Of a stretch of DNA of 64,000 bases, positions 7,256 to 56,733 are shown in pieces. The notes under the pieces were generated by a model. That model worked only from the letters and a program-made list of their open reading frames with translations, searched no databases and was not told where the DNA came from. Positions within the stretch are counted from its first letter, which is position 1. Each line of letters opens with the position of its first letter. The stretch is from Bacteroidales bacterium (GTDB lineage Bacteria; Bacteroidota; Bacteroidia; Bacteroidales; UBA932): positions 1-64,000 of the forward strand of contig JAFPVJ010000013.1 of the NCBI GenBank assembly GCA_017400135.1, read 5' to 3'. The translations under genes and the position numbers were made by a program.

Positions 7256-7396
7256 ATGAACAAAAAAGAATTTTACGAAGCGCCCGAATGGGCTATGAGA
7301 GCTTTGATGCTCGAGAGAACGCCAATCTGTTCCAGCCCGGGCGGCCCTGGTGATGATGAAGATTACAATGAGCCGAATAATGGAAATGATTACTAG
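7256..7396 (+). CDS. 46-residue leader-like peptide, Cys-Ser-Ser family, copy A
   Basis: Starts MNKKEFYEAPEWAMRALMLE, has a single Cys in the context T-P-I-C-S-S, then a Gly/Pro/Asp-rich acidic tail (DDEDYNEPNNGNDY). The same design occurs in three other small genes of this window (44909-45052, 48543-48683, 56596-56733). Each, like this one, ends 10-12 bp before a lipoprotein gene, here 10 bp. There is no signal peptide or membrane segment. The start is preceded by an A-rich stretch, as is usual for Bacteroidota genes. Function unknown; it could be a secreted partner, a precursor peptide or a translational leader. Confidence 0.65.
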   Translation: MNKKEFYEAPEWAMRALMLERTPICSSPGGPGDDEDYNEPNNGNDY

Positions 7397-7406
7397 AATT
7401 TGCCTT

Positions 7407-10127
7407 ATGAAAAAGATCACTCTTTTTAGCTTTTTTGCTCTCGCTATTCTTTCTTTTGGCGCTTGCCAAAAAGATGTCGTTTCCAGTGATGTTGACGAAC
7501 AGGTTCAGAATTTAGTTACGGTCACATTCACCGCAGAAAAAGTGGTAGATACTAGAACTACCGCCGTTGAAGGTGAAAGCAGTGTTTCTTACGAATGGAC
7601 TGATGACGATGTTGCGAATATGCACCTCTATTTGGTTACCGAGGAAGAGGTGGAAGAAAATGGTACTACGGTGACGAAATCGGTAGAGACGGAGGTCACT
7701 GACAAGACTGTTGCCATACAGTCTCCCACAAAGCTTACCATTTCTGCAAATGTAAGCTCGGCAGAATCGTACACTTTCCGTGCGAAATTGTTTACTGAGA
7801 CCACCTCTGGCGGCTCACCGAAAAGCTTGTCTTCACAGTACCCTGACGGAACAAGTAGTTACGATCCGACGGCGGATATTCTTCTTTCTGAGGATCTTAC
7901 TACTACGGAGACATCAGGACTCCTTCTCACCTTTTCTCGCAAGGTAGTTGTCAATAAGATGACTTTAAAGGGACTGACCCCGGAAGAACACGTAAAAGAG
8001 GTAACCATTACTTCCGACAAAAATATTGTGGGCTATCTTAACGGGACTACGATGAACGGTCAGACGAAGTCTATCACCCTTCATTATTCAAATGTTGAAG
8101 TCCCGGATAACGGTCAGTTCCCAGTATATTTTGTGACAATGCCTCAAGCTGGACAGACATTGACCGTTGTGGTGACCGTAAATGAAGGCTACACCTATTA
8201 TAAAACTTTCGGTGGCGGTAATCTGGAATTTAAGCTTGGGTCATTCACCCGTTTTGGGGTCAATAACCTTACTAAAGCGGAAATAGTTGACTTGAGTGGT
8301 ACGTATGTACTGGTAAATGCAGGTGGATCCTTCATGGCGAAGGCATATGTTGATGAAGACACGAAACTTACCTCTACTTCGACTACCCTTGAAGAAGGAA
8401 CGGTTTATTATGATCCGGATGATGTTGACATTAACTCCGCCAAGGTGACACTTGCAAAGGTTTCCATCAACGGCACGGATTATTATACCATTGCCCAGAA
8501 TAGTAAGTACCTCTATGCCGCCGGAGCGAAGGAGGGTGATAATCACCTTAAGGCGGCTACTTCTATTCCAGAAGAGAATAATGGAGGCTATTATTGGTCC
8601 ATCTCCAATACCAGTGGCTCATGGTCAGTTGTCGCTAATCGCACGCAGTATAGCAATATTCTGCAGATGAATACTAGTGGTCATAATTTTACTTGCTATG
8701 CTGCAGCTACACAGACTGCTGTTTCGCTCGTTCCCAATTATGCTCCCACTCCTGTAATCACGGCTAGCAATATCGCTCTGGTTGACGGAAATGCTATTAC
8801 GACTGCAACAGATCTGGGTGCCTCGTTTAATAGCAATACGGCGAGTGTAACCGCTGCGGCATATGATGACGAGACCCTTAATACAAACTCCTCCTGGCTC
8901 ACTGTTTCAGTTACTGGCAATACAGTAAAATATACTGCTTTGGCTAATAATACTGGAAATGAACGCGTCGCATATGTAAAGATTAATGCTACGAATTCTA
9001 ATAACAGAACTGTCTCCAAGACGATTGAGGTCTCACAACCGGCATTAGGATCTACATCAATGACGGACCACATAACCTATTCTTTGATTGGCGTTTCTGG
9101 AACTAGTTATACTGCTTGGTCAGGAAAAACATCTGTTTCCGATGCTGTCTATGCAGGAAAAACTGCGGGTGGTAATAACTCTATCCAGATTAATGCCACA
9201 AGTGGAAATGGTATCTATTCCTCATCTTCTGGTGGTTATTTGAAAAAAATATCTATTATCTGGAATAGCAATAATACGAATACATCTAGAAAAGTTACAG
9301 TCTATGCAAATAATACCGCATATACTTCTCCTTCATCAAGTGGAACAAAGGTCGTTGAATTTGCGGTAGGCGGTAGCACCACCTCCTACGATTTTACTGA
9401 TAATTTTCAGTATATTAGTATCGTTGCAAATGGAGCCGTTTATCTAGACGAGATTGCAATCACATGGGATTCAAATCCGTTCATGGAAACAGTTGCAAAA
9501 CCTTCTATTTCTGTTTCCAGCAATGTGATAACCATTACATGCGCAACTGAAGGTGCGTCTATTTATTATACTACTGATAACACCACTCCTTCTGTTTCTT
9601 CACATTTGTATACCTCTCCGATCTCTCTTAACGAGGGTGATTCGTATACAGTCAAGGCGATCGCTGTTAAAGAAAACTATTATGATAGTGAGGTTGCCAC
9701 TAAGGCCGTTTCGTATGTGGCACCTTCTAACAACTATTACGTCTTACTACCAACTGATGTCCCTGAGGTAAGTGCTTATTCCTCTACAGAAAAGAGTGTT
9801 ACCGCAGAGGATAAATCAGTTTGGAAACTGAAAGGATATGGTGCTTCCGAAACCCGGATCCAACTTGGGAAGGGCGGTGATAATTTTATCCTTACTCCTG
9901 AATGCGGGAGTGCGATTTCTTCGATCACTGTTGATTGTACTTCTTCTTATTATTTAACTGTCCAAAACACAGATGGGGAAGAGTTAATTGCTGCTCAGCC
10001 CGAAGATGGGGTTATTACCTTTGATTTATCAAGCTATTCTTACACTCAGGTGAAACTCGTTGCTCGAAGGTCGAGTGGAACAAGTAATGCTGCAGTATAC
10101 ATTACTAAAATTCAATTGAACTATTGA
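7407..10127 (+). CDS. Large surface lipoprotein with fimbrillin-like N-terminus, BACON-like and chitobiase-C-like domains
   Basis: 906 residues from the ATG at 7407; a longer frame begins at 7350 but overlaps the preceding peptide gene, whereas this start gives a clean lipoprotein signal (MKKITLFSFFALAILSFGAC). Residues to about 290 resemble fimbrillin/FimB-type domains with the early T-R-T-T and W-x-x-D-D motif. A BACON-like repeat follows (about 460-560), then a beta-sandwich, a chitobiase C-terminal-like domain (YYTTDNTTPS) and a last beta-sandwich ending ITKIQLNY. The composition is AT-rich. The stop TGA (10125-10127) is in the same frame as the nuclease gene behind it, and the frame after the stop keeps coding, so this may be the first part of a longer protein. 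Confidence 0.7.
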   Translation: MKKITLFSFFALAILSFGACQKDVVSSDVDEQVQNLVTVTFTAEKVVDTRTTAVEGESSVSYEWTDDDVANMHLYLVTEEEVEENGTTVTKSVETEVTDKTVAIQSPTKLTISANVSSAESYTFRAKLFTETTSGGSPKSLSSQYPDGTSSYDPTADILLSEDLTTTETSGLLLTFSRKVVVNKMTLKGLTPEEHVKEVTITSDKNIVGYLNGTTMNGQTKSITLHYSNVEVPDNGQFPVYFVTMPQAGQTLTVVVTVNEGYTYYKTFGGGNLEFKLGSFTRFGVNNLTKAEIVDLSGTYVLVNAGGSFMAKAYVDEDTKLTSTSTTLEEGTVYYDPDDVDINSAKVTLAKVSINGTDYYTIAQNSKYLYAAGAKEGDNHLKAATSIPEENNGGYYWSISNTSGSWSVVANRTQYSNILQMNTSGHNFTCYAAATQTAVSLVPNYAPTPVITASNIALVDGNAITTATDLGASFNSNTASVTAAAYDDETLNTNSSWLTVSVTGNTVKYTALANNTGNERVAYVKINATNSNNRTVSKTIEVSQPALGSTSMTDHITYSLIGVSGTSYTAWSGKTSVSDAVYAGKTAGGNNSIQINATSGNGIYSSSSGGYLKKISIIWNSNNTNTSRKVTVYANNTAYTSPSSSGTKVVEFAVGGSTTSYDFTDNFQYISIVANGAVYLDEIAITWDSNPFMETVAKPSISVSSNVITITCATEGASIYYTTDNTTPSVSSHLYTSPISLNEGDSYTVKAIAVKENYYDSEVATKAVSYVAPSNNYYVLLPTDVPEVSAYSSTEKSVTAEDKSVWKLKGYGASETRIQLGKGGDNFILTPECGSAISSITVDCTSSYYLTVQNTDGEELIAAQPEDGVITFDLSSYSYTQVKLVARRSSGTSNAAVYITKIQLNY
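10125..10127 (+). other. In-frame TGA separating lipoprotein and nuclease halves
   Basis: Both flanking ORFs are in the same frame. The codons just after the TGA read NQSEGGTLGDGNITAVSSDN and then an Ig/FN3-like domain without any stop. A single base change (TGG to TGA) would explain the split; stop readthrough or a sequencing error are alternatives. Confidence 0.6.
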
Positions 10128-10235
10128 AACCAATCCGAGGGCGGAACCCTCGGGGATGGAAACATCACAGCAGTTTCCTCCGATAACGTAAGCGCGTCAG
10201 GGGCGACCCTGACCGCTTCGTTTGAAGGAGTTAGT

Positions 10236-11360
10236 GTGACGCCGCATGCGCCGCAGCCAGTTGGATTCCGATACAAAAAAGCATCTGAATCGACTTGGCA
10301 GGAGGTGTTGTATGCGGAAGGTATCACGGTTTCCTCCGGCTCATTCTCTGTTGATATCAACAATCTGTCACCCGAAACCACATACGATTATGAAGCGTAT
10401 ATGTCGGTATGGACGGAGGATGGCTATCAAGAGATCTCTAAGGCGGGTCAATTCACTACGTTGTCTTCGGGGAGCGTGGCTACAGGATGGCTGGAACTTC
10501 CTGCATACACTGGAAACGAAGACTTGATACTAACGATGTACAAGACTGGAGGTACATCTGGGTCGGATGTTAATAGAAACTATACCTTCAATTACAGTAA
10601 GCAGTATTATGCCGCTCTTTGGACAGCATATACTCTAACTGAAGACGATGTGGTTGGTGGCCAAACTGGATCAACAAGTTGGACATTCAATAATTCTGTG
10701 TTCGATGGCGAATATCAGGTCGGCGTGAGCCAGAATGCCGGTAGTTATCCTTCGAATTATGAGAATGCCGACAAATACTCACGAGGACATCAAATCCCGA
10801 AAGCAGACCGAACCTCTTCTGGGATGGCTATGACTCAAACATACTATCTTTCCAATCAAACGGCTCAGATTCAGAATAAGTTTAATGGAAGCATCTGGGG
10901 CTCTCTTGAGAAGGCTGGACGTGGATTTGTGGTAACGGCATCCCATTCAGGCCATGATAGTTATAACGGTTCGTTTACTAAGACGGACGAATTGTATGTT
11001 GTTACAGGGCCTTGTTACGGAAAAAAGGGGACTACTGAAAGTCCCTCTTACTTGGAGGCATCCAATTCATCCATCCAGCCTCAGCGGCTCCCTATACCAA
11101 AATACTACTGGAAGGTCTTCCTAAAGGTCAAGAAAGACTCCAGCGGTAACATTACATCTGCTTGTGCAATCGGCTTTTGGTTTGTACACAGAGAGTACAA
11201 TTCTGATACAGAGCATTACACAGATTTTGCAGTCAGTGTTGACGATATAGAAGAATGGACTGGCTTTGACTTCTTTACGAATTTGCCTGGAACCCAGACT
11301 TCCGGCATCGAGAAAACAGCCGAGGCCAACTCCAACTGGACGACATTCCAGAACTTCTGA
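10236..11360 (+). CDS. DNA/RNA non-specific endonuclease (NUC family) with FN3-like N-terminus
   Basis: 374 residues from the first possible start, GTG at 10236; the frame is open back to 10128. Residues 1-75 complete an Ig/FN3-like domain (NNLSPETTYDYEAYMSVW). The nuclease core has the family signature S-R-G-H-Q-I-P-K-A-D-R with catalytic H185, then TYYLSNQTAQ and N-G-S-I-W-x-x-L-E, which bind the metal and position the substrate. NUC nucleases cut single- and double-stranded DNA and RNA and are normally exported. This ORF has no signal peptide of its own, which supports the view that it was once the C-terminal part of the lipoprotein before it. The active site looks intact. Confidence 0.8.
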   Translation: MTPHAPQPVGFRYKKASESTWQEVLYAEGITVSSGSFSVDINNLSPETTYDYEAYMSVWTEDGYQEISKAGQFTTLSSGSVATGWLELPAYTGNEDLILTMYKTGGTSGSDVNRNYTFNYSKQYYAALWTAYTLTEDDVVGGQTGSTSWTFNNSVFDGEYQVGVSQNAGSYPSNYENADKYSRGHQIPKADRTSSGMAMTQTYYLSNQTAQIQNKFNGSIWGSLEKAGRGFVVTASHSGHDSYNGSFTKTDELYVVTGPCYGKKGTTESPSYLEASNSSIQPQRLPIPKYYWKVFLKVKKDSSGNITSACAIGFWFVHREYNSDTEHYTDFAVSVDDIEEWTGFDFFTNLPGTQTSGIEKTAEANSNWTTFQNF

Positions 11361-11378
11361 TCCGTGTAAACAGCTTCA

Positions 11379-11413
11379 AAAACGGGAAAGACTCACCTCT
11401 TTCCCGTTTTTTT
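11379..11413 (+). terminator. Rho-independent terminator
   Basis: AACGGGAAAG, a short loop, CTTTCCCG followed by a T-run, 18 bp after the nuclease stop. Confidence 0.85.
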
Positions 11414-11422
11414 ATACCTTTC

Positions 11423-11453
11423 TTGTCTTTTCAATAGAAAAACACTAACTTTG
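11423..11453 (+). promoter_or_regulatory. Promoter of the OmpA-family gene
   Basis: TTG at 11423-11425 and TAACTTTG at 11446-11453 with 20 bp between them, a good match to the Bacteroidota consensus. The ATG is 33 bp beyond the -7 box. Confidence 0.65.
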
Positions 11454-11486
11454 TGAATTGGAAAAGAATTATCAAACCATAGCATC

Positions 11487-12665: not shown

Positions 12666-12684
12666 TCAGGAACAAGCACTTAAA

Positions 12685-12717: not shown

Positions 12718-12733
12718 TCTTTGATATCAAGCC

Positions 12734-13976: not shown

Positions 13977-13979
13977 GAT

Positions 13980-43405: not shown

Positions 43406-44896
43406 CTAGGAAGCATCGGCAGTAAACAGCACGATACGCGACACAAGAGCGGCGTAGGCGTTATAGTTTACCTGAGCTTCGAATTTCAGGGTCATGCCAG
43501 TCATGTCCTCGCCCGGAGCTATGTCGATAATTCCACCTCGGGTGTATCCTTGTCCCAGGTCCAGCATGGTTACATTGGTAACGGTGTAGACCAGCTGTTC
43601 GGCACCATTTACAGTCTTGTAGACTTTCAGAGGAAAGCTTTTGTTCTCCGGGAGCGACACGGGAGCGAGATAAAGCCGCACTTTCGTAATGGTTTTCCCT
43701 GCGACTGCCGGCAGTTTTATGTACCCCTGTCTGGCTTCTTCTGTCCGGCAGGGGAAACCCAGGGCGTCCGGAAGCATGCTGCCTCCATCCAGGTTGGAGG
43801 CCTTCCAGTTGAATGCCTTGATTTCCCAGTCACGGGTCACGTTGTCCGTCGCTGTCAGTTGTTTTGTCTGCGCGCTTAAAGTAGGATAATTCGACGTCGC
43901 TGCAGGCATCCCGTTGTGGAAAAATCCCTGGCTGATGGCAGGCTCCTCCGAATAACCGCTTCCCTTGATGTCGACGGTGAAAGTATTGATGGTTTTTGTG
44001 CTGAAAGTACCGGCCTTGATGTTGACGGTCCTTGTATAGCAAGCGTTGGCAGTAAGCACCGTAACGGTCATCGTCTTGCCGGAATTGATTTTAATGGGAC
44101 GCACGTTGAACCATACAGGCCAGCAGTCGCCCACCTTCTCCAGTCCTTCGTCATAAACGGCGCTTACGGCGTTGGACCGTGTGTAAGGAAGTGCCACCGC
44201 CGACCAATTAACTTCGTCGGGAGTAGCTCCAGCCGTGTAATTGCATCTGCCAGCCATGGTATTCAAATCCTCTGGAGATGCAGTCTGGCTTAAATCGAAG
44301 GTTACCGCATAAATCTTATCACCGGGATCGAGTCCCGTAATCTGAAGCTTGAACGGTGCGGTCAGGCGTTTGAAAGCGTTGATACTAGCCGTCTTGTCTC
44401 CGGTTCCTTCGATGGTGAAAGGCTTCGACACAAGGATATCCGTGGCCGGGTCAAAAGAATTCTGGCCGGGGAATTGGATGGCAGGGAAAGTAATCAAGAG
44501 ATGCTTGGTATTAGGATTCGCCCGGGTCAGTTCTTTGCTGTAAGGCACGATACCATACCAGGTCTTGTCCAAGGAAGCGTCAGGGGCGGTAAAACTATAC
44601 TTGCCGGTACCATCGGGAGTAGAAGCGATGGCATAAGAGGAATTTCCGACATACAACGGTTTCGTCTCATCTTCGTTGTCGTATAACAGAGCTATTCTCT
44701 CGTTTTGAGTGAGCCTAATACCATCACCGGGAGTATAAGCGGACCGGGACGATACCCAATCTTCATCAGAAACGGAAAGAGTCACCGGAGTACCTGAAGA
44801 AGGGATAATAATCTGTTCTTCATCGAGTTCCTGGACACAAGACACTCCGGCCAGGAAAAGGGCGAGGATGCCCGCTATTGCATAAATCTTTTTCAT
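43406..44896 (-). CDS. Fimbrillin-like surface lipoprotein
   Basis: 496 residues. Lipoprotein signal MKKIYAIAGILALFLAGVSC. The first half (EDWVSSRSAYTPGDGI, then YLYDNED-type and FPAIQFPGQNSF) is nearly the same protein family as the N-terminal half of the gene at 53926-56583; the end of the C-terminal part (ALVSRIVLFT) also recurs there. It has no beta-helix domain, so it is a shorter paralogue. The 47-residue peptide gene ends 12 bp upstream. Probably surface-exposed and glycan- or adhesion-related. Confidence 0.7.
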   Translation of the reverse strand: MKKIYAIAGILALFLAGVSCVQELDEEQIIIPSSGTPVTLSVSDEDWVSSRSAYTPGDGIRLTQNERIALLYDNEDETKPLYVGNSSYAIASTPDGTGKYSFTAPDASLDKTWYGIVPYSKELTRANPNTKHLLITFPAIQFPGQNSFDPATDILVSKPFTIEGTGDKTASINAFKRLTAPFKLQITGLDPGDKIYAVTFDLSQTASPEDLNTMAGRCNYTAGATPDEVNWSAVALPYTRSNAVSAVYDEGLEKVGDCWPVWFNVRPIKINSGKTMTVTVLTANACYTRTVNIKAGTFSTKTINTFTVDIKGSGYSEEPAISQGFFHNGMPAATSNYPTLSAQTKQLTATDNVTRDWEIKAFNWKASNLDGGSMLPDALGFPCRTEEARQGYIKLPAVAGKTITKVRLYLAPVSLPENKSFPLKVYKTVNGAEQLVYTVTNVTMLDLGQGYTRGGIIDIAPGEDMTGMTLKFEAQVNYNAYAALVSRIVLFTADAS

Positions 44897-44908
44897 GGCA
44901 GTGAAGTG

Positions 44909-45052
44909 TTAGTCATCAAAACTGTTATATTCATCCTCATCATCCGGGATATATCCATCGTCCCAGGATGAACAAATGACGGACCTGAAACCCATCATCC
45001 TGATCACAATATCCGGCACTTCATACGGCGCCTTAAGCATTTCTTTAGTCAT
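44909..45052 (-). CDS. 47-residue leader-like peptide, Cys-Ser-Ser family, copy B
   Basis: Begins MTKEMLKAPYEVPDIVIRMM, then V-I-C-S-S-W-D-D, and an acidic tail with repeated Asp (DDEDEYNSFDD). The Y-E-V-P-D segment is shared with copy D at 56596. It ends 12 bp before the lipoprotein gene at 44896. One Cys only, no signal peptide. Missed by ORF finders because of its length. Confidence 0.65.
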   Translation of the reverse strand: MTKEMLKAPYEVPDIVIRMMGFRSVICSSWDDGYIPDDEDEYNSFDD

Positions 45053-45105
45053 AGGCGTTGATTTAAGGTGTTGATTATTAATGTTTAGCGTTGTTCAATT
45101 AAGCG

Positions 45106-46524
45106 CTACTGCAGGCGCTGGGCATACTTTTCCTCGAGGCGGGTGATGGGCTCCAGGATGCCGCCTGAGCGGGCCCAGTAGTCGTCGTCGAGGGTGAAGA
45201 CGCCGCTTTTCACCAGGGACCAGGGGGCGTTCGGGTCCGGGAGGTCCTGACGCATTTTCTGCCAGTTGACATAGTTCTGGTGGCCGTTGGTCTCGACCAG
45301 GCCGAGGTCTCCGATGCCCGGGAAGGAAGGGAGGCGGGCAGCGACGGCCTTGTTCCATTCGACCATCACGGGCGGGACGGTCAGGTCCGCGCAGAAGCAC
45401 GGAACTCCCCGGTCGAAGGCGGCCTTGGCGATCATCAGGCTCATGGACATCGTCTTCGCGATCGGCTTGAGGGCCATGGCCCGGTAGCCCATGTCCATAC
45501 GTTTCTCAGCATCGGCCACCGTGTGGGCGGATTCATCCGCAGCCAGGCGCAGGGGGATGTCGCTCACGTCGATGTCCGCGGCCTCGTCGAAGGGTTCCTC
45601 GATGATGGCGACCTGGTCGTAGGCGCCGATGGCCTTGAGGTGGTCGATGAACTTCAGCAGCGTCTCCTTGGTCTCATAGCGCCCGTTCGCATCGAAATAG
45701 TACGGGATCTTGCCGTTGTCCGTATAGGGCGTGCGGATGTCCTTCAGGGCCTCGTGGATCTCGCTCACGCGTGCCATGTCCTTGGCCAGCATCTCTTCCT
45801 GGGTGCCAGCCTGCCCGATCTTGATCTTCATGAAGAAATAGCCCTCCTCAGCGAGGGACTTGATTTCCTCCACCGGCACGGCGTAGGTGATCAGCGGGAT
45901 GGCCGCGCAGTGCGCGTGATGCTCGGCCAGCGCGGGGCGATACTCCGGCGGAATCATGTCGTCGAAGTTCGTCAGACCATTCTCCTTGGCATAGAGCACC
46001 CAGGCCGCATTGTCCACCGACACGAGGGCATTCAGGGCGAAGGTGGCGCGCAGGTCGGGGTTGGCGCTGATCTGCCTGCCGTATTCCCAGACCTGGGGGA
46101 AGAGCCACTCCATCAGCTCGACGGGCGTGCGGAAGCTCTTGCCTTTCGCCAGCTTCAGGGCATACTGGGTCATGGAATACATGATGGCGCTGCCACCGGT
46201 CTCTGAGTTGGCGAAAAAAACGGAGGCGTCGCTCCAGAGGATGCTCTGCAGGCCCAGGCCGATGGCGTGCTGCCCGGAGGTGGAGCTCATGTAGGCCGAC
46301 ACGTTCCAGATCTCGGAGACATAGCCGCCCTTGAAGCCGAAGGGCCTCAGCAGGGGTTCGCGGTCGAAGTCGCAGGAGACCTTGTCGATGGTGATGACCT
46401 TGAGCGTCGTGTCGGGGCTCAGAACGGGTTCCGCAGGGATTGTTTGGGCGCACTCGCGGGACTTGCAGCCGGCAAAAGCGGCCGCCAGGACCAGCAGGAA
46501 GGTTATTTTGAAGAGGGGTTTCAT
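45106..46524 (-). CDS. Lipid-anchored enolase-superfamily protein (mandelate racemase/muconate-lactonising type)
   Basis: 472 residues. Lipobox in LLVLAAAFAGCKS. Enolase-superfamily barrel features are visible: FMKIKIGQ (the K-x-K base), YYFDANGRYET (first Asp ligand), VAIIEEPFDE (Glu ligand), RLAADES, and YRAMALKPIAKT (Lys). Enzymes of this fold abstract a proton next to a carboxylate, typically in sugar-acid dehydration or dipeptide epimerisation. A secreted lipoprotein version is unusual, since most work in the cytoplasm. The substrate is unknown, though the neighbours suggest a sugar derivative. Confidence 0.75.
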   Translation of the reverse strand: MKPLFKITFLLVLAAAFAGCKSRECAQTIPAEPVLSPDTTLKVITIDKVSCDFDREPLLRPFGFKGGYVSEIWNVSAYMSSTSGQHAIGLGLQSILWSDASVFFANSETGGSAIMYSMTQYALKLAKGKSFRTPVELMEWLFPQVWEYGRQISANPDLRATFALNALVSVDNAAWVLYAKENGLTNFDDMIPPEYRPALAEHHAHCAAIPLITYAVPVEEIKSLAEEGYFFMKIKIGQAGTQEEMLAKDMARVSEIHEALKDIRTPYTDNGKIPYYFDANGRYETKETLLKFIDHLKAIGAYDQVAIIEEPFDEAADIDVSDIPLRLAADESAHTVADAEKRMDMGYRAMALKPIAKTMSMSLMIAKAAFDRGVPCFCADLTVPPVMVEWNKAVAARLPSFPGIGDLGLVETNGHQNYVNWQKMRQDLPDPNAPWSLVKSGVFTLDDDYWARSGGILEPITRLEEKYAQRLQ

Positions 46525-46536
46525 ATCGGGATCGTT

Positions 46537-48531
46537 CTATTGCCAGCCGAATTCGTCGCTGCCATGTCCTTCGCCGTAGGACTCGGAGTTGCCGCCGGAA
46601 TCCCCGGCCCAGCTGCGCCAGAGCTTGGTTTCATAGCTGCAGCCCTTCCCGGCAAGGGACGGGATCAGACCCAGGTAGCCAACGGCCGTGTCGACAAGGG
46701 AGAAGGGGGTGAGGCCATACTCGAAGCGGTTGGGGGTCGGGACGGCGAAACGGGCCTTCAAGGCGTCCCCGTTGGCGAAATCCACGCCGCTGATGAAGCC
46801 GCCGCTGTTGTTGCAGTAATTGCCACCCACGGAAGAGGTCTCCGCCGACAGCTTGGAGTAGGGATAATAGATATTGAGCAGATAGATGGCCGAAGTGAGC
46901 TTCTGGTCCAGCACATTGTCCTCACAGACGATCGCCTTCGGGTCACAGGTCGCAAGGATGGTACCGCTGCCCTTGTAGCCCAGCACCGAATTGTTCCTGA
47001 AGGTGAATTCCAGTGTCGAATTCTTGGCGTCGGTGTCCGTGCTGAGGGTGAACAGGTTCGAGGTGCAACTCTCCTTGCCCAGGATCCCGCTCGTGTAGAC
47101 CAGGGCGTTGTTTTCGATCACGAAATCCGCGTACGGGACGGTCCCGTATGCAATGCTGCGGAACAGGGCGTGGTTGTAGTCGTTGCTGCGGACGACCACG
47201 CTGTTCTTCAGGGCGAAGGAACCCAGCGGGCTCGTGCTCTTGCTGTCATAGACCAGGCTGCCCGCCGCATTCTCGTTCGGAGCGAGGTAGAAGGCGCAGT
47301 CTTCAATGTCGAGCCGGGACCCTGAGACGGTCATCGACGCCGTCGTGAGGGCATTCGTATTGCTCCGGACACAGACGTTCTTCAGGGCCAGGGAGCCCTG
47401 GGGCGTGAGACTCTTTCCTTCAAAGACCAGCTCGCTGTGGTGGTCGGAATAGCGGCCCACAAGAGCCACGCCGTCGGCCGGGGCCAGGTTCGCATCCCGG
47501 ACTGTCAGCTTGTCCACGCCGGCATCGGCGGCGACATAATCCAGGAACACGACGTCGTAGCTTCCTCCGAGATAAGCGGCCAGATCGCTGCCCGCGGACA
47601 GCTGGCTCAGCCGAACCAAGGCGTAGGAAGGATGGGTGGACTTGTTGTAGGTCTTTCCGCCGATGACGAGGTCCTGACCGGCGGTGAAACGCCCGTACCA
47701 GTCGATGCCTTCCGGGGCCTCGAAGCTGGGCGTCCAGGTATAGGGGCTGATATGGCCCGCTTGGAAGGTCGCGGCGCCGCCCCGGTTCACCAGGGTCGCC
47801 TTCGAGCCGTCATTGGCATGGGCGGTGATGCTGAGCTCGCCGAGTGGTACCGTGAGAGCCGGGAAACCGATGTAGAAGCGCGTCCCTTCCGGGGTCAGGG
47901 CCACGCCGCTGCCGCAATCAAGAGTCACGGCGGTGCCCGAATACGGCAGCATCGTCATCAAATCGACCAGGCCGGAGATGGGGGTTTCCTTCGTCTGGAC
48001 GGAGATGCTCGTCAGGGTCTTGTCGCCCTTGATGGTCAGTTCCAGCAGGCCCATGGCGTTCTGGAACGAGAAACTGAGGGTTTCCGTCGAGGCGAACATC
48101 ACGTTCATATCCTTGATATTGCCCGGAGACTGGTAGTGCTGCGTGGAGGGCAGCGTAATGATCGGGATGCCCGATTCCATCGTCACGAGCCCAGCAGGAT
48201 ACAGGGCGGCATATTTGCCAATGCCATAATAGTCGGGCAAGGGAACGGGCTCGGGATCGGACGGATTCTTCTTGGTGAATACGGCCTTGCGGGCATCGGA
48301 CGCGTCAGGCGTGGCCACGTAGGTCACGACGCCGGCTCCGCTGATGATGTCCAGCTCATCCCCGCTCTCCCAGAGGACGCGGACGCCGTCCAGGGTGGTG
48401 CGGGTCAGGGCGCCGATCTCGGCGGTGAAGCGGATGGAAGCCGGGGGCTCGGGAAGGACGGTCTCCTTCCGGCATCCGGCCAGCAGGAGAGAAAGGGCCA
48501 GGGCGGCGAATAAGAATGCTTTGCTCTTCAT
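46537..48531 (-). CDS. Surface lipoprotein with fimbrillin-like N-terminus and beta-helix (DUF4957/DUF5123-like)
   Basis: 664 residues. Lipoprotein signal MKSKAFLFAALALSLLLAGC. The start contains IGALTRTTLDGVRVLWESGD, the T-R-T then W-x-x-G-D hallmark of fimbrillin-like domains. From about residue 290 it shows DUF4957/DUF5123-type parallel beta-helix repeats (GRFTAGQDLVIGGKTYNKST, ALKNVCVRSN, FVIENNALVY). Such proteins are frequent in pectin- and plant-glycan loci. It follows the peptide gene at 48543 by 11 bp. Confidence 0.7.
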   Translation of the reverse strand: MKSKAFLFAALALSLLLAGCRKETVLPEPPASIRFTAEIGALTRTTLDGVRVLWESGDELDIISGAGVVTYVATPDASDARKAVFTKKNPSDPEPVPLPDYYGIGKYAALYPAGLVTMESGIPIITLPSTQHYQSPGNIKDMNVMFASTETLSFSFQNAMGLLELTIKGDKTLTSISVQTKETPISGLVDLMTMLPYSGTAVTLDCGSGVALTPEGTRFYIGFPALTVPLGELSITAHANDGSKATLVNRGGAATFQAGHISPYTWTPSFEAPEGIDWYGRFTAGQDLVIGGKTYNKSTHPSYALVRLSQLSAGSDLAAYLGGSYDVVFLDYVAADAGVDKLTVRDANLAPADGVALVGRYSDHHSELVFEGKSLTPQGSLALKNVCVRSNTNALTTASMTVSGSRLDIEDCAFYLAPNENAAGSLVYDSKSTSPLGSFALKNSVVVRSNDYNHALFRSIAYGTVPYADFVIENNALVYTSGILGKESCTSNLFTLSTDTDAKNSTLEFTFRNNSVLGYKGSGTILATCDPKAIVCEDNVLDQKLTSAIYLLNIYYPYSKLSAETSSVGGNYCNNSGGFISGVDFANGDALKARFAVPTPNRFEYGLTPFSLVDTAVGYLGLIPSLAGKGCSYETKLWRSWAGDSGGNSESYGEGHGSDEFGWQ

Positions 48532-48542
48532 CTTCCGTCCTC

Positions 48543-48683
48543 CTATCCGTTAAACCAGTCCACATCGTCGTCGCGGACGAGATCATCGGTCTCTCCGCTC
48601 TGGCAGAGTACGCCCTGCGAGAGGAATTCCAGGATCTCCACCCGGGGAGATTCGTACAAGGGAAGGTAGGGTTGTTTCCTCAT
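48543..48683 (-). CDS. 46-residue leader-like peptide, Cys-Ser-Ser family, copy C
   Basis: Begins MRKQPYLPLYESPRVEILEF, has its Cys in G-V-L-C-Q-S and an acidic tail (D-D...D-D-D-V-D-W-F-N-G). It shares the Y-E-x-P segment with copies B and D. It lies between two lipoprotein genes, 11 bp before the one at 48531 and 11 bp after the stop of the one at 48695. Confidence 0.65.
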   Translation of the reverse strand: MRKQPYLPLYESPRVEILEFLSQGVLCQSGETDDLVRDDDVDWFNG

Positions 48684-48694
48684 GGCCGGACGCG

Positions 48695-51490: not shown

Positions 51491-52860
51491 CAGACCTTGG
51501 GCATCCAGCCCTTCTCGTACTTGCGGGTCCAGTACTTCATCGCCTCGCTGTCGCCGAGGATCTTGCCGGTCTTCGGGTCGATGTGCAGCGAATGGCCGAC
51601 ACGCTGGGCGATGTTGCCGTACTGCATCAGCTGGGTGCTCTTGCAGCCCTCGATGAGCGGGGCGTTGAGCGGGGTCCCGAGCCGGATGCCGTCGAGGAAG
51701 TTCTTGAGGTGGATGGTATCCAGGGCTTCGCAGGGGTTGAAGGTGTCGTTGACGCGCACGGGCAGGCTGCCCACGGCTTCCTTGACCACGTTGCCCTTCA
51801 TATCCCGGATGACATAGGAGTCACGGAAGTCGAACCACATGCAGCTGTCCTCGCCGTAGAAGGTCACGCCGTGCGTGAGGCCGTCGGTGGGGAAATGGTT
51901 GCGGCTGCGGCCCTCCCAGTTGACGGAGCAGCGGTCGCCGTACTGGAGCGTGATGAGCTGATAGTCAGGGGTCTGCCAGTCGTCGTCGACGAAGCGGTAC
52001 TTGCCGCCGACCGAGTTGACGAGGGTCGGATAATCATCCAGGCCCATGCCCCAGCGAATCACGTCGATGAAGTGGCTGCCGTTGTTGAGCGCCTCACCGG
52101 TGCCCCAGTCCCAGTACCAGTGCCAGTTGTAGTGGAGGCAGTTGGCCTTGAACTCCGTCTTGTGCGGAGCGGGGCCCTGCCAGAGCTCCCAGTCGAGGTT
52201 CTCCGGGACCGGAGAAGGATCGAACTTGCCGATGGACGGACGCGGGTGGGAATACCAGCTCTTCGCGACGGAAACGGTACCGAGACCGTATTCGCCGTTG
52301 CGCAGGATCTCTATGCCCTCACGGACGGTCGGCCAGGAACGGCGCTGGGTGCCGATCTGCACGACCTTGCCGTACTTCTTCTGGGCCTTGAGGACCATCT
52401 CGTTCTCCGCCGGAGTGTGGGTGGCGGGTTTCTCGAGATAGACGTGCTTGCCGTTCTCCATCGCCATGATGGCGGCGGCGGCATGCCAGTGGTCCGGCAT
52501 CGCGACGACGATCACGTCGATGTCGGGCATCTTGACCAGTTCGCGGTAGTCGCGCACATACTTGGGCTCGATGCCGGAAGCGGCCTTGCAGGCTTCCTGG
52601 GCGGCGGGTACGACAGCCGAGTCGCAGTCGCAGATGTAGACCACCTCGCAGTCGGAAGTCATCTGGGCGAAGTTCATGGCCAGGGCGCGGCCCCGGTTGT
52701 GGACACCGGCGACGGCCACACGGACCTTGTCGTTCGCACCCAGGACGCGGCCGGGAGCGGTCACGGGAATCTTCTTGCCCATGGCGTCCAGTTTGTCACC
52801 GATGGCGAGCGCGGCGCTCGCGACGGCGACCTGCTTGATAAATTCTCTTCTTGTTGACAT
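51490..52860 (-). CDS. Gfo/Idh/MocA-family oxidoreductase with Tat signal
   Basis: 456 residues. Twin-arginine signal MSTRREFIKQVAVASAALAI. Rossmann phrase VRVAVAGVHNRGRALAMNFA, the E-K-P motif intact in KHVYLEKPATHTP, and the C-terminal region HLKNFLDGIR. Close in style to periplasmic Bacteroidota members (GH109-like or 3-keto-sugar dehydrogenases). Tat export implies folding with its cofactor before transport. Confidence 0.85.
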   Translation of the reverse strand: MSTRREFIKQVAVASAALAIGDKLDAMGKKIPVTAPGRVLGANDKVRVAVAGVHNRGRALAMNFAQMTSDCEVVYICDCDSAVVPAAQEACKAASGIEPKYVRDYRELVKMPDIDVIVVAMPDHWHAAAAIMAMENGKHVYLEKPATHTPAENEMVLKAQKKYGKVVQIGTQRRSWPTVREGIEILRNGEYGLGTVSVAKSWYSHPRPSIGKFDPSPVPENLDWELWQGPAPHKTEFKANCLHYNWHWYWDWGTGEALNNGSHFIDVIRWGMGLDDYPTLVNSVGGKYRFVDDDWQTPDYQLITLQYGDRCSVNWEGRSRNHFPTDGLTHGVTFYGEDSCMWFDFRDSYVIRDMKGNVVKEAVGSLPVRVNDTFNPCEALDTIHLKNFLDGIRLGTPLNAPLIEGCKSTQLMQYGNIAQRVGHSLHIDPKTGKILGDSEAMKYWTRKYEKGWMPKV

Positions 52861-52884
52861 ATTTGATTTTTAGATTATTACCTG

Positions 52885-53922
52885 TTACAGGGCCGGATAG
52901 ACGTGCTTCCAGACGAGGTCCATCAGCTTCTGGCCCGCCGAATTGTAGGAGGTGACGACGATGACGGCATCCTTGTCCGGGATGACGATCACCCACTGTC
53001 CATAGGCGCCGCTCATGCGGTAGGCATCGTGTGTGCAGCGCCAGAACTGATAGCCGTAACCCTGGTAGAAGTCGCTGGTGGGGATCGTTGCCTCCACTTC
53101 GGGCTTCAGGGTCCCGGGAATGAACTGCTCGATCTGCTTGGAAGTGGCCTCTTCGATGAAGGCGGCATCCAGCAGTTGCTTACCCTTCCACTGTCCTTCC
53201 TGGAGGAGGAACTGTCCGGCCTTGGCGAGGGACTCGGGGCTCAGGAAGAGGCCCCAGCCTCCGAAGCAATAGCCTTCCGCGCTCTTCTCCCAGTACCAGT
53301 CCTTGATCCCGAGGGGCTTGAAAAGCTTCCGGGCGAGGTACTGGTCCAGGCTCTGGCCGGTCAGGTCGCTGACGATGACGCCCAGCAGGTAGGTGTTGGT
53401 GCTGTTGTACTCGTAGCGGCTGCCCGGGTCGAACTTGAAGGGTTCCTTGAACAGCGTCGCGGCGACGTCCTTCATCCCGGCGCGCAGCTCGCCGATGTAG
53501 TCCTTTCCGAAACCGGAGGCCATGATCGCAAGGTCACGGACGCTCACCTGCGCCAGGCGCGGATCCGCCCCGGCCGGGACGGCCTCGGGGAAGAAGTCCA
53601 CGACCTTGTCGTCGAGGCTCAGCAGCCCGTCCTGGATGGCAAAGCCCAGGGCCAGGGCCGTGAAGGACTTGCTGGCGCTCCACAAGACGTGGCGCCCCTT
53701 CATCGAATGGGCCGGGTCATGATACTCGTAGATCAGTTCCCCGCCCTTCAAGACCACCAGGGAGTGCAGCTGGTCCGTGCTGCGGCCCAGCGCGATTTCC
53801 GTAGCAACCTTGTCGAAATCTGCGTCGTAGCGCCCGTAGGCCGCACCCTTTTTCAGCCCCCCTGCGGACAGGGAGGCTGAAAGGGCGAATACGGCCAGAA
53901 GCGTTGAGACAACTCTTCTCAT
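52885..53922 (-). CDS. Exported serine hydrolase, beta-lactamase/S12 family
   Basis: 345 residues. Signal peptide MRRVVSTLLAVFALSASLSA. S-x-x-K motif at S82-K85 (LWSASKSF), a Tyr-based second motif in YEYNSTNTY, and a penicillin-binding-fold C-terminus. S12 enzymes include esterases and peptidases as well as beta-lactamases; within a glycan locus, a sugar esterase is a plausible role but this is inference. It lies 3 bp from the lipoprotein stop upstream in the operon, and 24 bp from the Gfo/Idh gene downstream. Confidence 0.8.
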   Translation of the reverse strand: MRRVVSTLLAVFALSASLSAGGLKKGAAYGRYDADFDKVATEIALGRSTDQLHSLVVLKGGELIYEYHDPAHSMKGRHVLWSASKSFTALALGFAIQDGLLSLDDKVVDFFPEAVPAGADPRLAQVSVRDLAIMASGFGKDYIGELRAGMKDVAATLFKEPFKFDPGSRYEYNSTNTYLLGVIVSDLTGQSLDQYLARKLFKPLGIKDWYWEKSAEGYCFGGWGLFLSPESLAKAGQFLLQEGQWKGKQLLDAAFIEEATSKQIEQFIPGTLKPEVEATIPTSDFYQGYGYQFWRCTHDAYRMSGAYGQWVIVIPDKDAVIVVTSYNSAGQKLMDLVWKHVYPAL

Positions 53923-53925
53923 GGG

Positions 53926-56583
53926 TTACCAGGTCTGCCAGAGCTTGGTCGCGTAGGTGGCACCGGCACCGTTGGTCACAACGGCGGTGTTGACCGGGAA
54001 GTAAAGCTTATCCACGTCGCAGGTCCCGAAGACGGTATTCTCGGTCGCATCTTCCTTGACGTTGTTGTCGGCAATCTTATACCAGGAGTCCTCTCCGCCC
54101 CATTGCGCGCCCCAATGCGTATTGGTCGTGAAGGGGGTGAAATGGAAGGTATTGCCACTGATGGAAGAATTGGACGCATTCGGATAAACCCAGTCGGGAG
54201 CCGGCGCAACATTACTCGCAGAATTACCGGCAAGAGCAAAAATCTTAACCGGATAAATGCCCGAGTCCGTTCCTCCGGTATACGTCCCAAACAGGACATT
54301 GTCGTCAATCACCACAGACTTGGCATTACTGGTGTTGAGAATGGCCCGGGGAGCGAAACCGTACATCGAGTTGTTCTTGAAGGTAAATTCGAGATTCTCA
54401 TGGTTTCCGAAAGCCGAAGGATAAGCGGCGCTCAGGTTGGAGAACACGAAGCAGCGGAAAGTGACCGCCTTGGTGCCGGACATCCGATTGTAGAAAACCG
54501 TATTCGTAACGGAGAACTTCTTGTACATCGGACACAGTTCAGGGGTCTTTGCCGCATTCTCGATGAAGTAGCAGGCACGGTCGCTGATATACGAATGGGC
54601 GATGATCGAATTGTCGATGATATAGCTGGTCACGGCCGCGGCTTCCTGGGCCTGGTCATAATAGAGGAAATGCGGGGAATCGATGGTACAGTCGATGATG
54701 TTCAGGCAGTTGTTCACCGTCGAACCGGCGTCATAGAACAAGCCGTGACTACTATCGGTGCTGGACATCCTTATGTTCAACAGAGACATTCCACCTCCCT
54801 TAATCTGCCAGAACTTGCCTCTCATGTCGATGAAGGGCTGGCCCTTTCCGATCTTGTAGCGACCGACGATGGCAGTAGGACGGACACGGGTCAGCACGAT
54901 ACCGGCCGCGTTGTCACCGGTAATCGTGACGGAATTGTCAATGAACAGGATATCACATTTCCGCACGGTATCCTTGAACGCCTTGTAATCACCATCCTCA
55001 ATCAGGCCGTATACGATGTCGTCGTCCTTGATGTTGTAGGTCTGGTTGCCGATGACGATGTCCTTACCGTCCATGAAATCCTGGTAATAGTCGCCTTCCA
55101 CCGGCAAGGGCTGCGTATTGCCCGTGAACAGGACGATGCGGGACACCAGGGCGTGGACGTGCTTGGCACATTCGCCGAACTTGATCGTCAGTCCCGTCAT
55201 GTCGCCGCTCGTCACCGCTTCCGGACAAGGGATGTCGATGATACCGCCGGCGGTATAACCCTTGGAGGGATTGTAGTCCAGCATGGCGCAGTTGTCGTAT
55301 GACGCGACGATATCCTCCCCATTGTACACCTCGAACGGGAAATCACGGGTCTCCGCGTACGAAATGGGAGCGAGGTACAGACGTACTTTCGTGATAGGAT
55401 TGCCTTCCGCCACGGCCGGGATCTTGATCGAAGCTCCCTGGCTCTCGGGGAAGCCCAAAGCGTTCGGAAGCGTACTTCCGCCGTCCATCTTGGCGGCCGT
55501 CCAGTTGTATGCCTTCATCTCCCAGTCGCGCGCCACGCCGTCCGTAGCCGTCAGGGAGACCGTCTTCTCGGTCGCAGCTGTGGTGATCGCCGCCGCATCA
55601 GGCATTCCGTTGTTGAAGAAGTCCTGGCTGATGGCAGGAACGCTCGTATAACCGTCTCCCTTGATGTTGAAGGTCAGTTTGTGGAGCTTGTCCGCCTCGA
55701 AGGCGCACTCATTGATGGTAGCAGAGCGCGTGTAGCAGGCGTTGGCCGTGAACACGGTGACGGTCACCTTGCTGTTCGCCGGAAGGGTACCGGGCAGAAC
55801 GCTGAACCAGACCGGCCAGCAGCCACCCTCCTCAACGAGACCCTCCTTATAGACGGCGCTCAGGTCATTCGACCGCGTGTAGGCCATCTGGATCGCATCG
55901 TAGGTGAAGTTGTCCGGCTCCGCGCCGATGTTGTAGAAGGCGACGCCGGCCAGCAGGTTGCCGAACGCTGACGACGCCTTCTTGCTCACGGCAAAGGTCG
56001 CGGCATAGATCTTCTCGCCGGCATCCAGACCGGTGATTTCAAGCTTGAAGGGTGCCGTGAGGCGCTTGAAGGCATCAATCGTCGCGGTCTTTGCACCGGC
56101 GGCGTCGATGGTGAACGGCTTGGCCACCAGGACATCCGTCTGCGGGTCGAAGGTGTTCTGGCCCGGGAACTGGATACTAGGGAAGGTGATCATCATCCGT
56201 TGGTTGGTGTTGATCTTCGCCCGTGACATCCAATAGCTGTAGGGCACGATGGCATACCAGGTCTTGTCCAGACCCTCCTCCGGGGCCGTGAAGCTATAGC
56301 TGCCACCACCCTGGGGAGAAGCGACGATGCCGAAGGAATTGTTACCAACGAGCAGGGAGCCGTTGTCATAGAACAGGGCGATCTTCTCGTCTTTGGTCAT
56401 TTTGACACCCTCGCCGGGCGTGTAGGCCGAACGGGTGGATACCCACGCCTCGTCAGAGACGGTCAAGGAAACGCGCGCTCCGTTCTCGGGGAGAACGACC
56501 GCACCTTCATCAAGTTCTTTTACGCAGGAAACGCCGGTCAGACAGAGAGCAGCGATCGCGAAGAATGCAAAAATCTTTTTCAT
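53926..56583 (-). CDS. Surface lipoprotein: fimbrillin-like N-half and DUF4957/DUF5123 beta-helix
   Basis: 885 residues from MKKIFAFFAIAALCLTGVSC; a Met three codons upstream is possible but overlaps the leader region. Residues to about 490 parallel the 43406-44896 protein almost segment for segment (EAWVSTRSAYTPGEGVKMTK, FPSIQFPGQNTFDP). The C-terminal part (about 500-880) carries DUF4957/DUF5123 repeats (YYQDFMDGKDIVIGNQTYN) as in 46537. It looks like a fusion or duplication of the two other lipoprotein types in the locus. The peptide gene ends 12 bp upstream. Confidence 0.7.
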   Translation of the reverse strand: MKKIFAFFAIAALCLTGVSCVKELDEGAVVLPENGARVSLTVSDEAWVSTRSAYTPGEGVKMTKDEKIALFYDNGSLLVGNNSFGIVASPQGGGSYSFTAPEEGLDKTWYAIVPYSYWMSRAKINTNQRMMITFPSIQFPGQNTFDPQTDVLVAKPFTIDAAGAKTATIDAFKRLTAPFKLEITGLDAGEKIYAATFAVSKKASSAFGNLLAGVAFYNIGAEPDNFTYDAIQMAYTRSNDLSAVYKEGLVEEGGCWPVWFSVLPGTLPANSKVTVTVFTANACYTRSATINECAFEADKLHKLTFNIKGDGYTSVPAISQDFFNNGMPDAAAITTAATEKTVSLTATDGVARDWEMKAYNWTAAKMDGGSTLPNALGFPESQGASIKIPAVAEGNPITKVRLYLAPISYAETRDFPFEVYNGEDIVASYDNCAMLDYNPSKGYTAGGIIDIPCPEAVTSGDMTGLTIKFGECAKHVHALVSRIVLFTGNTQPLPVEGDYYQDFMDGKDIVIGNQTYNIKDDDIVYGLIEDGDYKAFKDTVRKCDILFIDNSVTITGDNAAGIVLTRVRPTAIVGRYKIGKGQPFIDMRGKFWQIKGGGMSLLNIRMSSTDSSHGLFYDAGSTVNNCLNIIDCTIDSPHFLYYDQAQEAAAVTSYIIDNSIIAHSYISDRACYFIENAAKTPELCPMYKKFSVTNTVFYNRMSGTKAVTFRCFVFSNLSAAYPSAFGNHENLEFTFKNNSMYGFAPRAILNTSNAKSVVIDDNVLFGTYTGGTDSGIYPVKIFALAGNSASNVAPAPDWVYPNASNSSISGNTFHFTPFTTNTHWGAQWGGEDSWYKIADNNVKEDATENTVFGTCDVDKLYFPVNTAVVTNGAGATYATKLWQTW

Positions 56584-56595
56584 GGCTCTCATCTG

Positions 56596-56733
56596 TTAAA
56601 GGTTTCCGAAATCATTGAAATCCCCGGGGATGGTTCCATCCGTCCAGGATGTACATACGATGGATTCCGGCTCCATCAAGTCGATCCTAAGATCCGGCAC
56701 CTCGTATGGTGCCTTTGCCGTTTTTGTACTCAT
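56596..56733 (-). CDS. 45-residue leader-like peptide, Cys-Ser-Ser family, copy D
   Basis: Starts MSTKTAKAPYEVPDLRIDLM, Cys in S-I-V-C-T-S-W-T-D, acidic tail D-F-N-D-F-G-N-L. The core A-P-Y-E-V-P-D is identical to copy B at 44909, as is the following C-(S/T)-S-W. It ends 12 bp before the lipoprotein at 56583 and starts 43 bp after the DUF5017 gene. Confidence 0.65.
   Translation of the reverse strand: MSTKTAKAPYEVPDLRIDLMEPESIVCTSWTDGTIPGDFNDFGNL

What the first reader, a model, noticed from the sequence alone, without database searches (positions are those of the whole stretch)
7256..56733. Four tiny proteins of one design, each just upstream of a fimbrillin-like lipoprotein gene
Seen in the sequence: ORFs at 7256-7396 (+), 44909-45052, 48543-48683 and 56596-56733 (-) encode 46, 47, 46 and 45 residues. 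All have a basic start, a Y-E-x-P-type segment, an alternating hydrophobic stretch, a single Cys in [PVI]-[ILV]-C-[SQT]-S, and an Asp-rich tail. Each stop is 10, 12, 11 and 12 bp from the next ATG, which begins a lipoprotein with T-R/W-x-x-D or related N-terminal features. The nearest neighbours otherwise differ (nuclease half, plain lipoprotein, beta-helix lipoproteins). Inference: a conserved two-gene unit in which the peptide is a co-secreted partner, a precursor of a short-lived signal or modified peptide, or a translational leader. No signal peptide or known modification enzyme is present, so the route is open. Four instances within 50 kb make chance unlikely.
Basis: partly seen in the sequence, partly recalled or inferred. 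Interest (0 to 1): 0.8.

Follow-up and report, generated by a model that had tools for sequence, protein, structure and literature searches.

The report
Scattered peptide precursors beside surface lipoproteins
The four tiny proteins look like precursors of short modified peptides, probably processed by one small operon elsewhere in the genome and each paired with a surface-type lipoprotein, a layout that I found described nowhere for this recently reported class of phosphorylated bacterial peptides.

Summary
In detail: four 45-47-residue ORFs of one design, each 10-12 bp before a lipoprotein gene. The genome holds nine more such pairs. Best reading: leader-core RiPP precursors, with YxxP and a strand-like stretch, then [Cys/Ala]-x-Ser and an acidic tail. 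Elsewhere the genome has one operon with an HprK-like kinase, a Ser-His-Asp S24/S26-like peptidase, a PqqD-type RiPP recognition element (RRE) and an MsbA-like exporter; an NTP transferase gene follows another peptide-lipoprotein pair. These are the five core gene types of linear polyphosphorylated peptides (LPPs), reported in Bacillota in 2026. In 148 order genomes, 10 of 11 peptide-bearing genomes carry the kinase, against 8 of 137 others. In other Bacteroidales, YxxP peptides lie inside or beside such operons, in three loci directly before a lipoprotein. The predicted mature tail, not the leader, covaries weakly with the lipoprotein. Binding, phosphorylation, cleavage and export are inferred from LPP, not shown. 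New: an LPP-like system in Bacteroidota, a dozen or so precursors spread through one genome, and pairing with lipoproteins.

The parts
7256..7396 (+). Precursor-like peptide 1, 46 aa. YxxP at 7274-7285; predicted leader 7256-7327; predicted core from Cys25 (7328) to 7393; predicted Ser3 of core at 7334-7336
   Evidence: core boundary inferred from the LPP paper, not shown
7407..10127 (+). Lipoprotein paired with peptide 1, 906 aa, Fn3-associated domain and a BACON hit just under its cut-off; gap 10 bp
10236..11360 (+). DNA/RNA non-specific endonuclease (PF01223) downstream of pair 1; a peptide-lipoprotein-nuclease order lies 1.7 kb after the maturation operon in L126
44909..45052 (-). Precursor-like peptide 2, 47 aa. 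Predicted leader 45052-44975; predicted core from Cys27 (44974) to 44912
   Evidence: core boundary inferred
43406..44896 (-). Lipoprotein paired with peptide 2, 496 aa; gap 12 bp
   Evidence: (no Pfam family at E<=0.01)
48543..48683 (-). Precursor-like peptide 3, 46 aa. Predicted leader 48683-48606; predicted core from Cys27 (48605) to 48546
   Evidence: core boundary inferred
46537..48531 (-). Lipoprotein paired with peptide 3, 664 aa; gap 11 bp
   Evidence: (no Pfam family at E<=0.01)
56596..56733 (-). Precursor-like peptide 4, 45 aa. Predicted leader 56733-56656; predicted core from Cys27 (56655) to 56599
   Evidence: core boundary inferred
53926..56592 (-). Lipoprotein paired with peptide 4, 888 aa from the first ATG (gap 3 bp), or from 56583 (M-K-K, gap 12 bp)

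Best explanation
The peptides are leader-core precursors of an LPP-like RiPP system. A PqqD-type RRE binds the YxxP leader. An HprK-like kinase phosphorylates the conserved Ser, predicted to be residue 3 of the core. A soluble S24/S26-like (SipW/Sec11-type) peptidase cuts just before [Cys/Ala]-x-Ser. An MsbA-like ABC transporter then exports an acidic core of about 21 residues, perhaps after an NTP transferase has added to the phosphate. One operon serves about a dozen precursors spread through the genome. Each precursor is encoded with, and is probably dedicated to, the surface-type lipoprotein next to it. Shown here: the sequence design, the genomic pairing, the presence, layout and active-site residues of the operon, co-occurrence, linkage in relatives, and covariation of core with lipoprotein. 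Inferred from LPP: binding, phosphorylation, cleavage and export. Inferred from pairing and covariation only: action on the partner lipoprotein.
For: YxxP is invariant in the 42 diverse peptides chosen for A6 and is the motif that LPP and most lasso RREs bind. A Ser stands 18-20 residues after the Tyr in 98 of 107 relatives; two before it is Cys in 62 and Ala in 17 of 98. The LPP core begins Ala-Gln-Ser with Ser3 phosphorylated. The assembly has one PF05402 protein (E 7.9e-16), in an operon with kinase, peptidase and exporter. Ser33, His71 and Asp86 of the peptidase are invariant in 9 of 9 genus copies, as the LppS triad. A PF14907 NTP transferase gene follows another peptide-lipoprotein pair of the same genome. 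Among 80 kinase loci, 78 have the peptidase, 72 the RRE and 55 the exporter. Co-occurrence in 148 order genomes: both 10, peptide only 1, kinase only 8, neither 129, p 4.5e-10, without the window's genus p 2.6e-8. With profile A2, made before the operon was known: 7, 1, 11, 129, p 8.9e-7; leaving out a doubtful hit (G082) and the window's genus, p 4.7e-4. In 61 genus genomes: 44, 1, 10, 6, p 8.5e-4. Linkage: kinase, peptidase, RRE, NTP transferase, peptide, lipoprotein in the three loci read (L141, L146, L156); RRE-peptide-kinase-peptidase-exporter in L250; peptide-kinase-peptidase-RRE-NTP transferase-exporter in L243. Core similarity tracks lipoprotein similarity (rho 0.11 to 0.17, permutation p 0.0005 to 0.003), also between different genomes only (0.116, p 0.001); leader similarity does not.
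Against: In the window's own genome no peptide lies within 7.7 kb of the four-gene operon, so the link there rests on co-occurrence and on relatives. G032 has 25 peptide hits and no kinase hit (91% complete). G186 has a peptide frame before a lipoprotein but no kinase hit. Ten genus and eight order genomes have the kinase but no peptide found, which may be insensitivity of the profiles or another use of the kinase. The leader end ([VIL]-[IL] before Cys) differs from the LPP leader end Phe-Glu-Thr, so cleavage before Cys is a guess. In 6 of 107 relatives no Ser is at the expected place, and the distance was chosen to find one. The covariation is weak. L007 is an orphan without a lipoprotein. 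Related genomes are not independent, so the p values are too small. No structure or complex could be predicted. Peptidase and kinase stay below the cut-offs of the Pfam and NCBIfam models.
Confidence: 0.76

Rival explanations
1. Translational leader or upstream ORF: the peptide is only a reading frame that couples translation to, or regulates, the lipoprotein gene in cis.
For: Nearly always just upstream on the same strand (72 of 82 with a script-found lipoprotein ATG between -20 and 37 bp). Peptide 1 lies 237 bp from the previous same-strand gene, so it may be the first ORF of its transcript.
Against: In G054 two peptides lie 20-23 bp after a large protein and no lipoprotein follows; L007 has no partner; some peptides stand inside the maturation operon; the conserved residues are those of RRE leaders; the distal part covaries with the lipoprotein.
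Confidence: 0.1
2. Unprocessed small partner: the peptide stays whole and acts as a chaperone or adaptor, with RRE and kinase bringing a modification to the lipoprotein rather than to the peptide.
For: Tight pairing with lipoproteins; kinase and RRE in one operon; no signal peptide visible in the peptides (sequence).
Against: The operon also holds an SpI-like peptidase with an intact triad and an exporter, as in LPP where the precursor itself is cut and phosphorylated. Lipoproteins leave by Sec as unfolded chains (recalled).
Confidence: 0.1
3. Lasso peptide precursors: YxxP leader, RRE and an acidic core that could form a macrolactam.
For: Leader motif; the only solved relative of the RRE below E 0.001 is TfuB1, a lasso RRE (name recalled; E 3.5e-4); one of 53 members gives a weak hit to a lasso model (E 0.18).
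Against: No B2-type protease above cut-off in the genome (best E 0.0095, 16.7 bits against 26); no macrolactam synthetase noticed beside the kinase-peptidase-RRE operons read. L102, a different RRE cluster of a relative, does have Asn synthases. The synthetase was not searched in the own genome.
Confidence: 0.04

Closest known systems
Linear polyphosphorylated peptides (LPPs), Popov et al. 2026, PMC13381572 (matched passages, outline with abstract, sections 6, 7, 8, 11, 12 read; not the supplement)
   Same: Core gene types: SipW-like SpI peptidase, discrete RRE, HprK-like kinase, NTP transferase, MsbA-like exporter; YxxP leader; x-x-Ser at about the expected place; variable tail; no macrolactam cyclase noticed beside the operon
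   Different: The paper calls LPPs restricted to Bacillota and finds 1-3 precursors per cluster. Here: Bacteroidales, 13 precursor-like ORFs away from the operon in this genome, all before lipoprotein genes; mostly Cys at core position 1 (LppA has Ala); leader end [VIL]-[IL] instead of Phe-Glu-Thr; NTP transferase not in the operon in this genome
Paeninodin-type and other phosphorylated lasso peptides (from the LPP paper, and recalled)
   Same: RRE, HprK-like kinase, NTP transferase, [Y/W]xxP leader
   Different: Cysteine protease B2 not found above cut-off; cyclase not noticed beside the operon
SynChlorMet cassette (ScmC, TIGR04249)
   Same: The kinase gives its best NCBIfam hit to ScmC (E 1.8e-7, 30.8 bits against a cut-off of 125)
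   Different: No radical SAM gene noticed by eye beside the operon; not searched

Membership tests
LPP (linear polyphosphorylated peptides) | SpI-like (Ser-His-Asp) leader peptidase | tested here: met
   S33, H71, D86 invariant in 9 of 9; Pfam S24/S26 hits below cut-off, S24 only just; PDB relatives LexA and, weakly, SEC11A (E 0.033)
LPP (linear polyphosphorylated peptides) | Discrete RRE next to the peptidase | tested here: met
   PF05402 60 bits against cut-off 23.4; RRE in 72 of 80 kinase loci
LPP (linear polyphosphorylated peptides) | HprK-like kinase | tested here: met
   SGTGKST P-loop invariant in 9 of 9; HprK-related Pfam and NCBIfam hits, all weak and below cut-off
LPP (linear polyphosphorylated peptides) | MsbA-like exporter | tested here: met
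   ABC membrane and ATPase domains over cut-off; MsbA second among NCBIfam models, below cut-off; in 55 of 80 loci
LPP (linear polyphosphorylated peptides) | NTP transferase | tested here: met
   PF14907 in the genome directly after a peptide-lipoprotein pair, not in the operon; in the operon in L107, L141, L146, L156, L243. In one search, 13 of 25 genomes had one. That LppN is of the PF14907 family is recalled, not tested
LPP (linear polyphosphorylated peptides) | Precursor with YxxPxVLxHQxIxFETxxS leader motif | tested here: inconclusive
   YxxP and Ser met; Glu six before Ser in 52 of 98; His-Gln and Phe-Glu-Thr not seen in the consensus
LPP (linear polyphosphorylated peptides) | Precursors encoded in the cluster | tested here: inconclusive
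   Not in the window's genome; inside or directly beside it in L243, L250, L141, L146, L156
LPP (linear polyphosphorylated peptides) | RRE falls in the LPP clade of the RRE tree | not testable with these tools
   No LppB sequence was obtained; the PDB search did not return it
LPP (linear polyphosphorylated peptides) | Ser3 carries one or more phosphates; product linear | not testable with these tools
   needs mass spectrometry
Lasso peptides | B2 protease (PF13471) | tested here: not met
   best hit 16.7 bits, cut-off 26; the assembly is 88.6% complete
Lasso peptides | Macrolactam synthetase (Asn-synthase type) | not tested
   none noticed beside the operon; no genome-wide search made

The most novel reading that the evidence does not exclude
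A hub-and-spoke RiPP system: one maturation and export operon turns a dozen or more scattered precursors into different acidic phosphopeptides, each a dedicated ligand, assembly factor or covalent decoration of the surface lipoprotein made from the same transcript, with the N-terminal Cys left by cleavage as a possible attachment point.
Probability: 0.4. Interest if true: 0.92.

Novelty: new variant of a known kind. Interest (0 to 1): 0.8.

Why it matters
LPPs were reported in 2026 as a Bacillota family of unknown role. If these peptides are a Bacteroidota branch or parallel, the class reaches many uncultured rumen and gut Bacteroidales (record titles), and the precursors point to a role: a partner of surface-type lipoproteins. 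It would also show that RiPP precursors can be spread through a genome far from their enzymes, where mining centred on gene clusters would miss them. The finding makes the role of such peptides testable through defined peptide-lipoprotein pairs.

Tried and rejected
Rejected readings: a known small-protein family (no credible hit: best Pfam E 0.0072 and best NCBIfam E 0.095, each for one of 53 members; best PHROGs E 0.055 for one of the four); lasso peptide; disulfide partner of the lipoprotein (Cys content of lipoproteins equal whether the peptide has Cys1 or not, 55 and 24 pairs, p 0.70). An early error of mine: I read four own-genome hits on the wrong strand and took them for false; two searches showed that two (L008, L009) are true members and L007 a weak one; L010 stayed without a match. 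The codon-position test (762, 599 and 1169 differences at positions 1, 2 and 3 over 54 pairs) fits coding but is biased, since pairs were chosen by amino-acid identity; I give it no weight. A search for YxxP ORFs in gaps of distant kinase clusters gave no convincing new peptide.

Literature: no paper holds fimbrillin, small proteins, upstream and Bacteroidales together; RiPP with Bacteroidales and PqqD gives one paper, in whose passages matched by my terms no such system is named; 'linear polyphosphorylated peptides' occurs in one paper, whose main text has no word starting with 'bacteroid'; fimbrillin-like with lipoprotein and RiPP gives none. Listings and passages of PMC12710340 and PMC7533575 showed no account of this system. 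Only open-licence papers are held, so an account elsewhere is possible.

Full report
Observation. The four ORFs are real and of one design. Each lies 10-12 bp before a lipoprotein ATG. Profiles A2 and A6, which contain window peptides themselves, find no further member below E 0.1 in the window; a plain motif search finds the same four and none in the reversed window.

How many in this genome. Profile A2 finds 13 places in the 2.3-Mb assembly, 88.6% complete: four in the window and nine elsewhere. The nine also stand just before lipoprotein genes. A fourteenth, L007, is weak (E 0.016) and has no lipoprotein; it sits between a large ORF and a hairpin. The genus is that of G012, whose contig C59 has the same length (166,926) as a record named Candidatus Cryptobacteroides onthequi; so the window is very probably from a Cryptobacteroides MAG.

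The family. From 60 relatives and an order sample of 148 I collected 82 distinct peptides. For 73 a script found a lipoprotein start downstream: in 72 of these its ATG lies between -20 and 37 bp (negative values come from alternative upstream ATGs), while L048 has a second small ORF in between (193 bp). Of the other nine, five show a lipoprotein signal by eye (L036, L030, L021, L092 and L065, the last with a broken frame), one is cut by a contig end (L061), and three have none: L007, L087 and L093. L087 and L093, from another family (G054), lie 20-23 bp after a large protein that ends like a T9SS sorting domain (recalled motif). My crude pattern for a T-[RK]-T ... W-x-x-G-D type N-terminus matched 44 of the 73.

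Anatomy. In 107 distinct peptides with YxxP, a Ser stands 19 residues after the Tyr in 77, 20 in 15, 18 in 6, 21 in 3; 6 have none there. I looked for a Ser at these distances, so its presence is partly by construction; in A2, aligned without that choice, Ser is in at least 90% of 53. For the 98 at 18-20: two before the Ser is Cys in 62 and Ala in 17; the residue before that is Ile, Leu, Phe or Val in 88; six before is Glu in 52. The part from Cys or Ala onward averages 20.9 residues; after the Ser it has 24.7% Asp+Glu and 2% Lys+Arg; 85 of 98 have an aromatic residue among the last six. That is a leader with a fixed motif and a variable acidic core. The sample leans to this genus.

The machinery. 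The YxxP leader suggested an RRE, so I searched PF05402: the own assembly has one match, and 29 of 41 genomes in the call have one. The own copy lies in a four-gene operon on contig C17: HprK-like kinase (46078-46956), S24/S26-like peptidase (45656-46081), PqqD-type RRE (45383-45652), ABC exporter (43751-45382). In nine genus copies the peptidase Ser, His and Asp, the kinase P-loop SGTGKST and RRE residues N35 and D73 are invariant. By spacing, N35 and D73 could be the residues that in LppB hold the leader at Pro and Tyr; I had no LppB sequence to test this. In the PDB the RRE profile finds TfuB1 (E 3.5e-4), the peptidase profile LexA and, weakly, SEC11A. A PF14907 NTP transferase lies at C20:65894-66925, directly after the lipoprotein (66938-69355 from its first ATG) of a further peptide pair. 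So the five LPP core gene types are all present.

LPP comparison. In PMC13381572 (sections 6, 7, 8, 11, 12 read) the LPP genes are SpI peptidase, RRE, HprK-like kinase, NTP transferase and MsbA-like exporter; the precursor has YxxP; the peptidase triad is Ser-His-Asp; the core begins Ala-Gln-Ser and Ser3 is phosphorylated; the authors call LPPs restricted to Bacillota and their role unknown.

Linkage in relatives. Of these, 51 show kinase-peptidase-RRE-exporter in that order and 14 the same without exporter; overall 78 have the peptidase, 72 the RRE, 55 the exporter (contig ends cut some). Thirteen of the 80 hold a peptide match at E<1, the weakest at 0.28. I read L141, L146 and L156: kinase, peptidase, RRE, NTP transferase, YxxP peptide, lipoprotein (NTP transferase by Pfam; some operon ORFs are hidden by opposite-strand ORFs in the listing and are taken). 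L152, L153, L161, L163, L164 and L169 have a peptide at a similar distance, but I did not read them. In L126 a peptide, lipoprotein and nuclease, as in window 7256-11360, stand 1.7 kb after the operon. Among 17 kinase loci of the order sample, 15 have the peptidase, 12 the RRE, 13 the exporter; L250 has a peptide between RRE and kinase, L243 one directly before the kinase, and L249 a weak one (E 0.47) before the kinase; no peptide match at E<=0.5 lay in the other 14.

Co-occurrence. In one sample of 148 order genomes the kinase (A4, E<=1e-10) is in 18 and the peptide (A6, E<=0.01) in 11; both in 10; Fisher p 4.5e-10, or 2.6e-8 without the two genus genomes. A6 includes peptides found beside operons of other genomes. 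With A2, made before the operon was known, the peptide is in 8 and both in 7, p 8.9e-7; one of these hits (G082) lies in a 1466-residue frame and is doubtful; without it and without the genus p is 4.7e-4. In 61 genus genomes the kinase is in 54, the peptide in 45, both in 44; p 8.5e-4. Related genomes are not independent, so these p values are too small. Exceptions: G032 (25 peptide hits, no kinase) and G186 (peptide frame in which I saw no ATG before YxxP, then a lipoprotein, no kinase).

Pairing. Over 79 peptide-lipoprotein pairs, similarity of the part after Ser3 rises with similarity of the lipoprotein (rho 0.144, p 0.001); the leader shows rho 0.048, p 0.13. With redundancy limits (60-75 pairs) and with leader or length held fixed the result stays, rho 0.106 to 0.138. 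With the core taken from Cys onward, 78 pairs, rho is 0.175. Within the genus (67 pairs) core gives rho 0.123, p 0.001, leader -0.049, p 0.82; with G+C held fixed core 0.122. Counting only comparisons between different genomes (2079 of 2211), core 0.116, p 0.001, leader -0.052, p 0.88. The effect is small, but the leader is an internal control for shared descent. It suggests that the mature part belongs to its lipoprotein.

Mechanism and doubt. I hold precursor status as well supported, phosphorylation of the Ser and cleavage before Cys or Ala as likely by analogy, export as likely, and action on the lipoprotein as a fair guess. The predicted cut site is the weakest step: the leader end differs from that of LPP.

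Noticed in passing
window 43406-62745 (-): The three minus-strand pairs sit in what reads, by eye, as a glycan-uptake type operon: SusC-like 59578-62745 and SusD-like 57814-59565 (recalled resemblance, no family search), a DUF5017 lipoprotein, a serine-hydrolase-like protein (by eye), a GFO/IDH/MocA oxidoreductase and an enolase-like enzyme.
   Followed up: partly
window 48695-51490 (-): A lipoprotein with the same T-R-T ... W-S-E-G-D type N-terminus but no peptide directly before it; peptide 3 and the next lipoprotein follow it instead.
   Followed up: no
window 5559-7018 (+): A 111-aa ORF and a protein with an IrrE-like M78 domain (PF06114) stand before peptide 1; by recalled resemblance they may be a toxin-antitoxin type pair.
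   Followed up: no
L102 5613-13026: Another RRE-type cluster in a genus relative (G013): two Asn-synthase proteins, HprK-like kinase, sulfotransferase, PqqD and YcaO side by side. It looks like a separate RiPP locus.
   Followed up: partly
   Followed up: partly
L048 (-), about 1091-1286 counted on the reverse strand: A second small ORF of similar look, but without YxxP, stands between a peptide and its lipoprotein.
   Followed up: partly
G032 (no single locus): 25 peptide hits in one genus genome without a kinase hit, at 91% completeness.
   Followed up: no
L007, 1482-1614 counted on the reverse strand: Orphan peptide of the own genome after a PhoH-like ORF (recalled) and before a hairpin.
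   Followed up: partly
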